From positions 38,624-102,623 of the forward strand of contig JBBHKE010000065.1 of the NCBI GenBank assembly GCA_037447655.1: a stretch of DNA of 64,000 nt, given 5' to 3'. The first letter of the stretch is position 1; each line of letters opens with the position of its first letter. The notes beneath the pieces are model-generated. The model saw nothing but the letters and a program-made list of their open reading frames with translations. It did not search any database and had not been told where the DNA came from. Positions 7,501 to 62,201 of this stretch are shown one piece after another. This DNA comes from Zygnema cylindricum. Its lineage: Eukaryota > Streptophyta > Zygnematophyceae > Zygnematales > Zygnemataceae. The position numbers and the translations under genes were made by a program.

Positions 7501-8436
7501 ACAACAACAAAAGAATGCACAATTTCTCACCAATGATGAAAAAAAACCATTTCACTTTACGTTTAAAAAAAGGAGATTAAAATTGCGAAGTAGATGTGTT
7601 AATCCAATACGCGAAGTGACCTCGAGAGAAACTGCAAAAAAAAAAAACATGTCCTCTTGCTATGCATAGTTTCATTACTTACTGAACATTATTCCACAGC
7701 TGCAAACATCCAAAGTTTCCCACTCTAATACTCAAAAACCATCCACATTCAGTTTATAATCCACATTAAAAGTTAGTGAAAACTATTGCAAACGGCTCTA
7801 TAGAGCACCCTTATTTATCATAAGAAAAAAGTCACCTATTACCTCTGAAATATGGAAAGACATTTACCTGTTTTAGCAGCTCTTTTAAAAACTAGTGTGA
7901 CAACTCGGATTCCTTAGTTTCCAAAGAATCTAGAGATTTCGCACCAGAATCTGAAAAAACTCCAAAAATTCCATCAGCAAACCTATATTGTAAACACCAA
8001 GTCAAGTGAAAAAGTGTTATAAAACCCTAACACACACATTGTATTTTTAACAATATTAAAGACAGAGAACAGGATACTACATATACTCAGAAAATTCCTT
8101 ACACAAACTACATCCAAGTTTCCTATATTGAAAAAGAAAGCAGCTATCCAATGGCAAGAACTAGAGCAACTTCCAAATCAATTACACAAGTAAGTCATTC
8201 ATTTTGTAACAAACTCATTTTTCTAACTGCATCTCAAAAGCTTTTCAAAAATTAAAATACATCAAAGAAAAAAATATGACATTTTACAAAAGATCTATTT
8301 ATTTACATGCAAAGTTTCACCGGACCTTCCACCGAATCTTCCAAGAACAAATCATTGCTCATATCTCAAAATCGACCCTCCGCCGCAAACTGTGGACAAA
8401 GGAAGCTGCTGCAGCAGCCGTGGCTATTGTCACAGT
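4501..8436. other. Low-complexity AT-rich stretch without a gene
   Basis: There are many A and T runs and no frame with recognisable motifs. The frame at 4858-5085 (75 residues, lysine- and arginine-rich) and the frames near 5825-6110 lie in simple sequence and have no family signature. I see no tRNA, LTR or clear inverted-repeat element here. Confidence 0.5.
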
Positions 8437-8836
8437 ATGTCACAGTATTCTTGCCTACAGGATGTCACAGGATTCTTGGCTACAGGATGTCACAGGATTC
8501 TTGGCTACAGAATGTCACAGGATTCTTGGCTACAGAATGTCACAGGATTCTTGGCTACAGAATGTCGCAGGATTCTTGGCTACAGAATGTCACAGGATTC
8601 TTGGCTACAGGATGTCACAGGATTCTTGGCTACAGGATGTCACAGGATTCTTGGCTACAGGATGTCACAAGATTCTTGGCTATAGGATGTCACAGGATTC
8701 TTGGCTACAGAATGTCACAGGATTCTTGGCTAGAGAATGTCACAAAATTCTTGGCTACAGGATGTCACAGGATTCTTGGCTACAGAATGTCACAGAATTC
8801 TTGGCTACAAGATGTCACAGGATTCTTGGCTACAGA
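8437..8836 (+). repeat. Minisatellite, 16 x 25 bp
   Basis: Sixteen units of exactly 25 bp start at 8437 and repeat without indels up to 8836. A typical unit is ATGTCACAGGATTCTTGGCT followed by ACAGG or ACAGA. Because 25 is not a multiple of 3, one turn through three frames gives a 25-residue peptide repeat and all three forward frames stay open (frames at 8276-8854, 8307-8903 and 8392-8685). These frames are a consequence of the repeat, not evidence of a gene. Variation is mostly G/A at the last base plus a few substitutions. Confidence 0.95.
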
Positions 8837-8898
8837 AGGTCCTCTTCAAAATGATGTTTCTCTCCTAAAACCTGTTATTCTGTTAAGCAGATTCAAAC

Positions 8899-9205
8899 CA
8901 TAGTTCAAAAGTAGGCGTTTTTATGGTAGGCCTTTGGTCGGCGCCTTTATCGTAAGTTGTGTTATGGGCTTTTCATGTGAACCTCTTCGATCGCTACTTT
9001 GATCAGCGACCGTCCGATCGTCCTAGTCTGACGTAGTAAATAAATTTCTTTGGTCCGAATGTTTTAATTGGTCCAATTATTCGTCCAAATGTTTTAATTG
9101 GTCCAAATAGGTCCAAATACAATAATGGGTCTTAAGGTCATCCTTTATGTTTTGCGTACAATAAGCATATTGTATGGGCCTACTTTCACCTACTTTTGAA
9201 CTATG
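8899..9205. mobile_element. MITE-like element with 17 bp inverted ends
   Basis: CATAGTTCAAAAGTAGG at 8899-8915 has its exact reverse complement at 9189-9205, and the match continues imperfectly inward (GTAGGCC on both sides). The flanks ATTCAAAC (8891-8898) and ATTCAATT (9206-9213) match at 6 of 8 bases, suggesting an 8 bp target duplication as in hAT elements. The interior repeats AATTGGTCCAA-type motifs and has no coding capacity. Family assignment is an inference. Confidence 0.65.
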
Positions 9206-57426: not shown

Positions 57427-57431
57427 GAATC
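57427..57431. repeat. Target-site duplication of element G, left copy
   Basis: GAATC here and at 61036-61040, a perfect 5 bp match around element G. Confidence 0.9.
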
Positions 57432-58791
57432 TGTTGTTCTTTGGTCTAAAATAGACCGCAGAAGCGACCCAAACTATCATGCAAAAAGCTAAGCCAAAAA
57501 TAGGTCAACGAACAATCATTTGAAATGCATCCTCCATTTAACATACAACAACATTTAGGGTTTTATGGAATAATCAACATAAATAAACCCTATGACAACA
57601 TCTAAGGTTTGATGGAATAATCGACATAAACAAACCCTAGGACAAATGCATAAACAATGCATATCAAACATATATAAAAACATAAATAAATAATAACACA
57701 CAAATGCATCACACATAAACAAGAGTATAATCAAAGTATAATCATTATATCATTCAAAGTGCATGACCTAATCGGCAACCCTAAAATACTACATCTTCGG
57801 TCCCCACTTTACTAACCAGCATTGATTATTATTCTAATGAAGCTCAAACCTATATATATATACACTTGTGAGCTGTTAACAAATCCCTAAGTGTCAAAAT
57901 AACCAACGTAAATTACATAACTGTCATTAAATAAAACTAATCGTAAGCGTACACCTGAAAGTCAAGCAATCGTAAGCGTACACTTGTCTGCAAATACGAC
58001 ATCGTACACACACAAATTACACTATCAAAACCCTAATTGATCACTTAAAAATAAACATCATAATCAACACTAGTTTATAATGATGTAAAAGACAAAACAA
58101 TGTTTCTCCAAATATTTACACCGACGCATCCACAAATCCGCGTCATAAGTGACAACTTGCTTAGTCACTTGTCGATAAGTCCACGTAGTGAACCGACATC
58201 GCATATGTACGGTCCACTAGATAATGTGTCATAAAAACAATGTGGTCCCTTAAAAATCGGCTGACGCCATCCGCCTTCCACGTGTACCACGAATCACTTG
58301 TCAAACAATCCGTACCATACAAATCTTGTCCGTACCGAAATCACGTACTTCGTCATAAATGTCGCGTGTCAAATACGACGCTCCGTACCGGCGGCGTCAC
58401 ATTTAATAAATGCGGTCTGTCGCATTATGTTTCATATGGCCGGCGTACTTTTCAAATTCTTCGAATATTTCAAATCGAATCGTGAAGCGATCCGCCGTCC
58501 ATTTCCATTTCGTATTCCGTATTTTTCGTACGCTTCTTCGCGTCACTTAATTTGTACTTTTTCGTCACCTTAAATTCATATTTCATATCGAATCGCTTCG
58601 CGATCCGCCGTACATTTTCAAATGTTTGTTCGCGCCACTCACACGTAACTTTAATTTTGCTCGTACACTTACTCCCCCAATCCACAAATCCTTTCGAACC
58701 TCCACAGTATATAACGTAAATATATACGCACGAAACGTCGCGTGCGCATCAAATTTCACATACGCACGAAACTAAATCTTCAAAAACAACA
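57432..58791 (-). repeat. Element G 3' LTR
   Basis: On the minus strand starts TGTTGTTTTTGAAG and ends AAAGAACAACA. It contains two copies of the GGATCGCGAAGCGATCC-like palindrome (58477-58493 and 58590-58606). A GTACG/CGTACG-rich zone lies around 58300-58620. Confidence 0.92.
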
Positions 58792-59661: not shown

Positions 59662-59677
59662 GTGTGGGCCCATAACC
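59662..59677 (-). promoter_or_regulatory. Element G primer-binding site (half-tRNA type)
   Basis: Minus strand GGTTATGGGCCCACAC follows the 5' LTR end ACAACA directly. It is perfectly complementary to GTGGGCCCATAACC of initiator tRNA-Met. The gag-type peptide QQVMGPHP is encoded across the LTR/primer-site border. Confidence 0.88.
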
Positions 59678-61035
59678 TGTTGTTCTTTGGTCTAAAATAG
59701 ACCGCAGAAGCGACCCAAACTATCATGCAAAAAGCTAAGCCAAAAATAGGTCGACGAACAATCATTTGAAATGCATCCTCCATTTAACATACAACAACAT
59801 TTAGGGTTTTATGGAATAATCAACATAAATAAACCCTATGACAACATCTAAGGTTTGATGGAATAATCGACATAAACAAACCCTAGGACAAATGCATAAA
59901 CAATGCATATCAAACATATATAAAAACATAAATAAATAATAACACACAAATGCATCACACATAAACAAGAGTATAATCAAAGTATAATCATTATATCATT
60001 CAAAGTGCATGACCTAATCGGCAACCCTAAAATACTACATCTTCGGTCCCCACTTTACTAACCAGCATTGATTATTATTCTAATGAAGCTCAAACCTATA
60101 TATATACACTTGTGAGCTGTTAACAAATCCCTAAGTGTCAAAATAACCAACGTAAATTACATAACTGTCATTAAATAAAACTAATCGTAAGCGTACACCT
60201 GAAAGTCAAGCAATCGTAAGCGTACACTTGTCTGCAAATACGACATCGTACACACACAAATTACACTATCAAAACCCTAATTGATCACTTAAAAATAAAC
60301 ATCATAATCAACACTAGTTTATAATGATGTAAAAGACAAAACAATGTTTCTCCAAATATTTACACCGACGCATCCACAAATCCGCGTCATAAGTGACAAC
60401 TTGCTTAGTCACTTGTCGATAAGTCCACGTAGTGAACCGACATCGCATATGTACGGTCCACTAGATAATGTGTCATAAAAACAATGTGGTCCCTTAAAAA
60501 TCGGCTGACGCCATCCGCCTTCCACGTGTACCACGAATCACTTGTCAAACAATCCGTACCATACAAATCTTGTCCGTACCGAAATCACGTACTTCGTCAT
60601 AAATGTCGCGTGTCAAATACGACGCTCTGTACCGGCGGCGTCACATTTAATAAATGCGGTCTGTCGCATTATGTTTCATATGGCCGGCGTACTTTTCAAA
60701 TTCTTCGAATATTTCAAATCGAATCGTGAAGCGATCCGCCGTCCATTTCCATTTCGTATTCCGTATTTTTCGTACGCTTCTTCGCGTCACTTAATTTGTA
60801 CTTTTTCGTCACCTTAAATTCATATTTCATATCGAATCGCTTCGCGATCCGCCGTACATTTTCAAATGTTTGTTCGCGCCACTCACACGTAACTTTAATT
60901 TTGCTCGTACACTTACTCCCCCAATCCACAAATCCTTTCGAACCTCCACAGTATATAACGTAAATATATACGCACGAAACGTCGCGTGCGCATCAAATTT
61001 CACATACGCACGAAACTAAATCTTCAAAAACAACA
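59678..61035 (-). repeat. Element G 5' LTR
   Basis: 1358 bp, near-identical to 57432-58791. Palindromic motif copies at 60721-60737 and 60834-60850. Confidence 0.92.
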
Positions 61036-61319: not shown

Positions 61320-61324
61320 ATACG
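61320..61324. repeat. Target-site duplication of the TRIM, left copy
   Basis: ATACG here and at 61840-61844, a perfect match. Confidence 0.88.
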
Positions 61325-61429
61325 TGTTGGATTGGCACGTGAAGCCGGTCCAATACGGGGTAGAATATGGAAATATCCATACTCGAGCCGCCCGTAATAA
61401 ATGGGTACGGACCCGCCAGTCTCAACATC

Positions 61430-61501
61430 GAGCTGGTGGCACAATGGTAGTGCGTTCGCAGCTGAAGTGAAAGGTCCCAGGTTCGAACCCTGGCCGGCTC
61501 A
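61430..61501 (+). tRNA. tRNA-like gene inside the TRIM LTR (nominal anticodon CTG, irregular)
   Basis: It folds by eye into a full cloverleaf. The acceptor GAGCTGG/CCGGCTC has 7 pairs (one G-T), the D-stem GCAC/GTGC encloses AATGGTA, and the anticodon stem TTCGC/GTGAA encloses the loop AGCTGAA. The variable loop is AGGTC and the T-stem CCAGG/CCTGG encloses TTCGAAC, with discriminator A. The A box (TGGCACAATGG) and B box (GGTTCGAACCC) are canonical. TTTT follows at 61503-61506, a Pol III terminator. Base 33 is G instead of the invariant T, so decoding is doubtful. From memory, the D-arm resembles plant tRNA-Trp with a compensatory pair change. Confidence 0.75.
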
Positions 61502-61502
61502 A

Positions 61503-61506
61503 TTTT
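61503..61506 (+). terminator. Pol III oligo-T terminator after the LTR tRNA
   Basis: TTTT begins two bases after the end of the tRNA acceptor stem, the usual place for RNA polymerase III termination. The second LTR keeps it as well (61789-61792). Confidence 0.7.
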
Positions 61507-61553
61507 CCCAAGTGTGGGACATGCCAAATCCCGGATTTCTAGGAAATCTAACA

Positions 61554-61568
61554 TGGTATCGGAGCCAG
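61554..61568 (+). promoter_or_regulatory. TRIM primer-binding site (3' end of initiator tRNA-Met)
   Basis: TGGTATCGGAGCCAG follows the LTR. It matches the plant consensus TGGTATCAGAGCC with one mismatch. This differs from the anticodon-arm primer site used by the other families in this window. Confidence 0.88.
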
Positions 61569-61599
61569 CGGGATTGCGGATGGTTTGACCGGCTTTCCC

Positions 61600-61610
61600 G
61601 TGAGGGGGGG
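61600..61610 (+). promoter_or_regulatory. TRIM polypurine tract
   Basis: GTGAGGGGGGG directly precedes the second LTR. Confidence 0.85.
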
Positions 61611-61839
61611 TGTTGGATTGGCACGTGAAGCTAGTCTAATACGGAGTAGAATATGGAAATATCCATACTCGAGCCGCCCGTAGTAAATGGGTACGGACCC
61701 GCCAGTCTTAACATCGAGCTGGTGGCACAATGGTAGTGCGTTCGCAGCTGAAGAGAAAGGTCCCAGGTTCGAACCCTAGCAGGCTCAATTTTCCCAAGTG
61801 TGGGACATGCCGAATCCCGGATTTCTAGGAAATCTAACA
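61611..61839 (+). repeat. TRIM 3' LTR
   Basis: Same length (229 bp) as the 5' LTR, with mainly C/T and G/A differences. Confidence 0.92.
61716..61787 (+). tRNA. Second, decayed tRNA-like copy in the TRIM 3' LTR
   Basis: Counterpart of 61430-61501. The A and B boxes are intact. The anticodon stem has a G-A mismatch (GAGAA), one T-stem pair and one acceptor pair are lost (CCTAGCAGGCTC). A proper fold is less likely than for the first copy. Confidence 0.55.
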
Positions 61840-62201
61840 ATACGGACACTGTATATAACTGTACGAAATATGTACAGGTGCAATGGAAGGTACTTTATTA
61901 TACAAAGTCAACAATATAATACAGTATGTTATAAAGTACTATTGTATGCATACTATATTTTTTTAAGTTATCGCCGATATGAAATTTGTTGCTCTCAGAC
62001 CGATATATTGGAACCTCTGACCGTTCGATAACCGATAATTATCGGTATCGGTGTTATCGCGATAAGTTTTTTACAGATACACAACAATACAAATTTGGCG
62101 ATATCTGATTCTCGATATGTCTAAGTGATATATGGATTTTCAGCTATCTAAAGTTAAGTACACATCGAATATCAGAAAGGGAGCTTCGATACACAACACT
62201 A

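What the first reader, a model, noticed from the sequence alone, without database searches (positions are those of the whole stretch)
61325..61839. A miniature LTR retrotransposon whose LTRs each carry a tRNA gene
Seen directly: two 229 bp LTRs with TG/CA ends, a 57 bp interior with primer site and purine tract, a perfect ATACG target duplication, and within each LTR a sense-strand 72-base sequence. The first copy can form all four tRNA stems, has canonical A and B boxes and is followed by TTTT. Established: Cassandra TRIMs carry 5S rRNA sequence with Pol III promoters in the LTR. A tRNA in the same position would be a parallel solution with a different Pol III gene; I know no named family like this. 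Inference: Pol III transcription from the LTR may help the element's RNA supply or mimic tRNA. The G at position 33 suggests selection for promoter and fold, not for decoding.
Basis: partly seen in the sequence, partly recalled or inferred. Interest (0 to 1): 0.88.

Follow-up and report, generated by a model that had tools for sequence, protein, structure and literature searches.

The report
Tiny retrotransposon with tRNA-like promoters
This is a very short, protein-less jumping element of a plant-type genome whose end repeats each carry a tRNA-like sequence; the kind was named Helenus in 2024, so it is a new example of a known kind rather than a new kind of element.

Summary
In detail: two 229-bp LTRs (61325-61553, 61611-61839), a 57-bp interior with an initiator-Met-type primer site and a purine tract, ATACG duplicated on both sides, and a tRNA-like segment in each LTR (53.7 and 38.2 bits, Rfam tRNA). 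It belongs to a recently active family: I fetched 40 loci (the window's included) with 90 LTR pieces; 85 of 90 match the tRNA model, 30 of 37 loci with intact outer LTR ends show an exact 5-bp duplication, and 592 places in the genome match a 32-nt piece of the segment (control 0). New here: a second family (B) in the same genome with a different, intact tRNA-like segment, and one family-A LTR whose tRNA 5' half matches family B. Pol III transcription is inferred, not shown.

The parts
61320..61324 (.). left target-site duplication ATACG
61325..61553 (+). 5' LTR, 229 bp
61396..61401 (+). AATAAA about 30 nt before the tRNA segment (in 80 of 85 family LTRs; lost in the window's 3' LTR): possible Pol II poly(A) signal, counts against a Pol III-only reading
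61423..61425 (+). CAA 7 to 5 nt before the tRNA segment (plant tRNA-gene start motif in PMC11700998); in 79 of 85 family LTRs
61430..61501 (+). tRNA-like segment of 5' LTR (box A and box B inside), 53.7 bits
61503..61506 (+). TTTT, possible Pol III terminator (T4 in 83 of 85 family LTRs)
61554..61565 (+). primer-binding site TGGTATCGGAGC (initiator-Met 3'-end type; tRNA identity recalled)
61554..61610 (+). whole interior, 57 bp, no coding capacity
61600..61610 (+). polypurine tract at the end of the interior
61611..61839 (+). 3' LTR, 229 bp, 10 differences from 5' LTR
61716..61787 (+). tRNA-like segment of 3' LTR, 38.2 bits, partly decayed
61840..61844 (.). right target-site duplication ATACG

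Best explanation
The feature is a copy of a young Helenus-type TRIM (TRIMp3): a 515-bp LTR retrotransposon without genes. Shown: LTR/primer-site/purine-tract anatomy, 5-bp target duplications, hundreds of dispersed matches, a tRNA-like segment in nearly all LTR pieces examined. Inferred: RNA polymerase III is recruited by boxes A and B, starts near the CAA just before the segment in the 5' LTR, reads through the short TTTT in that LTR and ends at the TTTT of the 3' LTR, giving an RNA whose repeated end (R) is the tRNA-like segment; this RNA is primed by initiator tRNA-Met and copied and inserted by the machinery of a plant Copia element acting in trans. The segment serves as promoter and terminator, not for decoding.
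For: Anatomy; 5-bp duplication at 30 of 37 loci with intact outer LTR ends (chance per locus about 0.001); 90 LTR places from the 40 scored of 989 candidates; 264 LTR-to-primer-site junctions genome-wide, control 13; 592 tRNA-segment matches, control 0; 6 of 27 two-LTR elements have identical LTRs, so recent activity. tRNA model match in 85 of 90 LTR pieces. CAA before the segment in 79 of 85 aligned LTRs, TTTT in 83, GGTTC of box B in 83; CAA upstream and poly(T) downstream are plant tRNA-gene features (PMC11700998, passages). Same structural features in the Helenus paper. Copia gag/pol remains are common in this window, and Copia, with 5-bp duplications, is the proposed helper of fungal Helenus.
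Against: No transcript data. No autonomous partner with the same primer site was found in the DNA I held, about 0.3 Mb of 352.8. A TTTT lies right behind the segment in the 5' LTR, so much Pol III transcription might stop there. An AATAAA about 30 nt before the segment is present in 80 of 85 LTRs and leaves a Pol II transcript possible. CAA is absent at that place in the one family-B element read. No sign of selection on the segment within the family. Conservation of boxes and T4 is weak evidence in copies this young.
Confidence: 0.7

Rival explanations
1. A Pol II-transcribed TRIM in which the tRNA-like segment lies in U5 and acts as RNA structure (packaging, mimicry of tRNA, 5'-end protection), not as promoter.
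For: AATAAA upstream of the segment in 80 of 85 LTRs; the region before the segment folds better than 200 of 200 shuffles (z -3.1); Pol III use by Helenus is itself unproven.
Against: Box A, box B and T4 are present in 82-83 of 85 LTRs, though that is also expected of young copies. I ran no test for a TATA box or Pol II start.
Confidence: 0.2
2. A passive passenger: a SINE or tRNA gene inserted into a TRIM LTR and was copied along, with no function.
For: Within family A the segment varies at least as much as the rest (30 of 72 sites variable against 45 of 157, Fisher p 0.07); stem changes keep pairing in 10 of 23 cases, expected 36%.
Against: A second family in the same genome also carries an intact tRNA-like segment in its LTRs; many Helenus families are reported. 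Post-insertion changes in young copies say little about selection on the source copies.
Confidence: 0.08
3. A genuine tRNA-Gln gene spread by an LTR element and used in translation.
For: ARAGORN names it tRNA-Gln(CTG) with all stems formed.
Against: G instead of U before the anticodon; the four host tRNA-Gln(TTG) genes fetched are not among the four best matches to the segment (no host Gln(CTG) gene was fetched); 60 of the 63 host tRNA places scored lie above 53.7 bits.
Confidence: 0.02

Closest known systems
Helenus (Kojima 2024, PMC10886601; I read text parts 1-4 of 6 and the figures/tables section)
   Same: TRIM, mostly under 1000 bp, two LTRs with a tRNA-derived sequence, primer site and purine tract, 5-bp duplications in plants and fungi, box B GGTTC, anticodon and tRNA body often of different isotypes, tandem arrays in one family (zebrafish), several families per genome, initiator-Met 3'-end primer in some fungal families.
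   Different: The only plant family described there (Selaginella moellendorffii) has a 120-bp LTR and an 85-bp interior; here 229/57 and 246/61. An exchange of tRNA segments between two families within one LTR is not described in the parts I read.
Cassandra TRIMs (PMC7215508, passages)
   Same: Non-coding TRIM with a Pol III gene in the LTR, primer site TGGTATCAGAGC, short tandem arrays of about three LTRs.
   Different: 5S rRNA, not tRNA, in the LTR.
tRNA-derived SINEs (SINE2; recalled, and as described in PMC10886601)
   Same: tRNA-like Pol III promoter in a non-coding retroelement.
   Different: No LTRs, no primer site; moved by non-LTR retrotransposons. Possible source of the segment (Kojima's proposal).

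Membership tests
Helenus | LTR retrotransposon shorter than about 1000 bp without protein genes | tested here: met
   515 bp, 57-bp interior
Helenus | tRNA-derived sequence inside both LTRs | tested here: met
   Rfam tRNA in both window LTRs and in 85 of 90 LTR pieces at 40 loci
Helenus | primer-binding site and polypurine tract at the ends of the interior | tested here: met
   47 of 49 interior matches begin TGGTATC(G/A)(G/A)AGC; the purine tract is at the end of the complete ones, with a few single changes. The primer tRNA is recalled, not matched to a host initiator tRNA
Helenus | 5-bp target-site duplication (plants, fungi) | tested here: met
   30 of 37 testable loci; not at the one family-B locus
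Helenus | conserved box A (TRGCY, YGG) and box B (GGTTC) | tested here: inconclusive
   GGTTC in 83 of 85; box A is TGGCA with TGG in family A, so the last base of TRGCY is not met; family B has TAGCT. The paper says most, not all, families have it
Helenus | anticodon and tRNA body of different isotypes in many families | tested here: inconclusive
   Gln anticodon, but the segment is closer to other host tRNAs than to the Gln(TTG) genes fetched; only 27 of 63 scored places were fetched and tRNAscan-SE was not run
Helenus | Pol III transcription | not testable with these tools
   no transcript data; also unproven in the Helenus paper
Helenus | similarity to an autonomous Copia or Gypsy partner (reported for some families, not defining) | tested here: inconclusive
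   none found, but only about 0.3 Mb of the 352.8-Mb genome was held
Cassandra | 5S rRNA-derived sequence in the LTR | tested here: not met
   tRNA is the only Rfam family that matches the LTRs (one sub-threshold SNORA75 match in L042 aside)
functional tRNA gene | U before the anticodon | tested here: not met
   G there in family A, C in the family-B element

The most novel reading that the evidence does not exclude
Helenus-type elements living in one genome swap tRNA modules: a family-A LTR (L032:264-494) has family-A sequence on both sides but the 5' half of family B's tRNA segment, joined at the first base of the tRNA. If such joins recur, they would mark the RNA 5' end at the tRNA start, making the tRNA-like segment the R region, and show that the Pol III module is exchanged by template switching between co-packaged RNAs.
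Probability: 0.18. Interest if true: 0.55.

Novelty: new member of a known kind. Interest (0 to 1): 0.35.

Why it matters
In the one paper I found on this group, Selaginella is the only plant with a described family; this genome, plant-type but not named here, may add another green lineage, with two co-resident families, recent insertions, tandem arrays and one exchange of tRNA segments. That makes two ideas testable in one genome: that tRNA-promoted TRIMs are transcribed by Pol III, and that they exchange their promoter modules. It also warns that tRNA gene counts in such genomes are inflated by LTR copies.

Tried and rejected
Compensatory changes as proof of fold selection inside family A: rejected. 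With the chimeric L032_1 and the deleted L041_1 left out (83 of 85 LTRs used), 10 of 23 distinct stem substitutions keep a pair against 36% expected. The two double changes seen first both lie in L032_1 and belong to the family-B segment.

Self-priming: the primer site is not complementary to the segment's 3' end (reading).

Source tRNA: of 63 host tRNA places scored out of 24,620 first-look candidates I fetched 27; the best-scoring match to the segment has 51 identities over 72 (Arg-CCT, L095) and gives no clear parent.

Autonomous partner: a scan of all DNA held for TGGTATCNNAGC found only the two TRIM families.

Host: a window Copia protein is 40-46% identical to the 120 best listed relatives, the named ones nearly all plants; an LRR protein is at most 35% identical to the 120 best of 7,482 hits, the named ones nearly all plants; psbA-type fragments lie in three contigs; tRNAs are plant-type. 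A text search for the assembly size named no host. Zygnema cf. cylindricum SAG 698-1a (359.8 Mb, 3,587 scaffolds, 29.8% Copia; PMC9915684, passages) resembles this genome in size and Copia load, but the numbers differ; not claimed. A comparison of L052's exon with solved structures only confirmed an aquaporin.

Full report
What is there. Its two LTRs differ at 10 of 229 positions, more than in most elements fetched, so this is one of the older copies. Rfam's tRNA model matches the 5' LTR at 53.7 bits and the 3' LTR at 38.2 bits. ARAGORN calls the first tRNA-Gln(CTG). The window's copies have A where 78 of 85 LTRs have G in box A (LTR position 120).

Is it a family. A search of the window's own genome (G000, 352.8 Mb, 2,689 contigs) with one LTR listed 90 places from the 40 candidates scored out of 989. 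I fetched these as 40 loci, the window's included. They hold 90 LTR pieces: 29 loci with two, 4 with one, 7 with three to five in tandem. Of 37 loci with both outer LTR ends intact, 30 have an exact 5-bp duplication and 7 do not; one of the 7, L027, is flanked by the element's own interior rather than by host DNA. The other 3 of the 40 have a truncated outer LTR. Of 27 elements with two full LTRs, 6 have identical LTRs. Pattern counts over the whole genome: 592 matches to a 32-nt piece of the tRNA segment with up to 3 mismatches, control 0; 264 matches to the 16-nt LTR/primer-site junction with up to 1 mismatch, control 13. From the two counts I infer roughly 250 junctions with an interior, and solo LTRs besides.

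The tRNA segment in the copies. 85 of the 90 LTR pieces match the tRNA model at 33.7 bits or more (40, 45). The five misses are two fragments that lack the segment or most of it (L011, L019), two pieces in L041, one of them with a deletion, and one in L038. Of 85 full LTRs aligned, 54 have the identical 72-nt segment. CAA lies 7 to 5 nt before it in 79, TTTT behind it in 83, GGTTC of box B in 83. In flowering plants CAA within 10 nt upstream occurs at 36-45% of tRNA genes, where it can act as a start site (PMC11700998, passages).

Test of selection. With L032_1 and L041_1 left out (83 of 85 LTRs used), 30 of 72 tRNA sites vary against 45 of 157 elsewhere (Fisher p 0.07), and 10 of 23 distinct stem substitutions keep a pair against 36% expected (p 0.52). 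Box B has the lowest rate (3 substitutions over 11 sites and 85 copies), but 3 variable sites of 11 is about what 75 of 229 predicts (3.6). The variation looks like decay after insertion, with C-to-T and G-to-A changes most frequent at CpG. Such young copies cannot decide the matter.

A second family. One LTR, L032_1, has the usual flanks but a different tRNA 5' half. A search with this LTR found no second LTR like it: the next best is 93% identical (81 matches from 40 of 1,004 candidates scored). Searching the genome for the odd half alone gave 235 matches with up to 3 mismatches, control 1; among the 100 places listed, five contigs hold pairs or triples 307-308 bp apart. One of these places, L108, is a complete second TRIM, family B: LTRs of 246 bp with two differences, a 61-bp interior with TGGTATCAGAGC and GTGAGGGGGCG, and a 73-nt tRNA-like segment at LTR positions 113-185 (49.4 bits in both LTRs). 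It is the only family-B place I read. Its flanks show no target duplication (GTGTC, GTAGC). Families A and B share the LTR start TGTTGGA, the end AACA and the ends of the interior; the rest of U3 and U5 is only weakly similar (14 and 20 of 1000 shuffles score as high). On a six-row alignment of tRNA segments that I picked (four of family A, the chimera, one of family B), 8 of 21 pairs have a both-sided change and 93.7% of cells pair, against 26-42% when the partners are slid by one to three columns. This shows that both fold as tRNA; it does not tell common descent under selection from two separate tRNA captures. Neither has U before the anticodon.

The chimera. L032's 5' LTR equals its 3' LTR except for the first 41 nt of the tRNA segment, which are one G followed by family B's first 40 nt. 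The upstream join thus falls at the first base of the tRNA; the downstream join lies in the anticodon stem, a few bases before a stretch that the two families share (AAGGTCCC). Template switching between co-packaged RNAs would explain the first join if family B's RNA begins there. But one round of reverse transcription should put the same sequence in both LTRs, and here only one has it, so later gene conversion or recombination between elements is at least as likely. It is one case among the 90 LTR pieces.

How it most likely works. Pol III starts near the tRNA segment of the 5' LTR, passes its TTTT, and stops in the 3' LTR; initiator tRNA-Met primes; Copia-type enzymes from elsewhere copy and insert. 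Only the anatomy, the 5-bp duplications and the copy number are shown here. The rival with most weight is Pol II transcription from upstream, because AATAAA lies before the segment in 80 of 85 LTRs.

What is known. A text search of 5.39 million open papers found Kojima 2024, PMC10886601, of which I read parts 1-4 of 6 and the figures and tables section. It defines Helenus as TRIMs with a tRNA-derived sequence in the LTR, in fungi, animals and one plant, Selaginella moellendorffii (120-bp LTR, 85-bp interior, 5-bp duplications), proposes the group name TRIMp3, and suggests origin by SINE insertion into an LTR. Further searches named no other plant family: Helenus with retrotransposon gave 3 papers (Kojima; a 2026 meeting report that mentions it, passages; a butterfly genome, listing only); TRIMp3 gave Kojima and three unrelated papers; four wider searches were seen as listings. 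Most subscription journals, preprint servers and Repbase were not searched.

Host. Plant-like proteins, tRNAs and psbA-type fragments point to a photosynthetic host with plant-type genes. I could not name it.

Noticed in passing
L011, L018, L022, L031, L035, L037, L041: Tandem arrays of three to five LTRs separated by interiors; 6 of the 7 arrays (not L011, whose ends are truncated) are flanked as a whole by one exact 5-bp duplication.
   Followed up: partly
L109 (G000:C144:51040-51330): tRNA segments repeat every 243 bp; the stretch read has a truncated LTR end and a short spacer in place of the interior, as if the LTR were turning into a satellite.
   Followed up: partly
interiors of L009-L048: The primer site occurs mainly in three forms, TGGTATC followed by GG, AG or AA and then AGC, in otherwise identical interiors. 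Primer sites are partly copied from the primer tRNA (recalled), so several initiator tRNA forms may be used.
   Followed up: no
window 61325-61429: The U3 part begins TGTTGGATTGGC and ends GCCAGTCTCAACA just before the tRNA segment: it has inverted, LTR-like ends of its own and folds better than shuffles (z -3.1). It might be an older, shorter LTR to which the tRNA segment and U5 were added.
   Followed up: no
window 57428-58791 and 59674-61035: A 1.36-kb direct repeat 99.6% identical, 2.2 kb apart, just upstream of the element.
   Followed up: no
window 36-57 kb: Three diverged copies of a unit in tandem, with spacings of 6.9-7.0 and 8.0-8.9 kb.
   Followed up: no
window 8357-8931: 25-bp tandem repeat that keeps reading frames open with YRMSQDSWLQ-like repeats in several frames.
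   Followed up: no
window 12-35 kb: Several decayed Copia elements with gag, integrase and reverse transcriptase pieces.
   Followed up: partly
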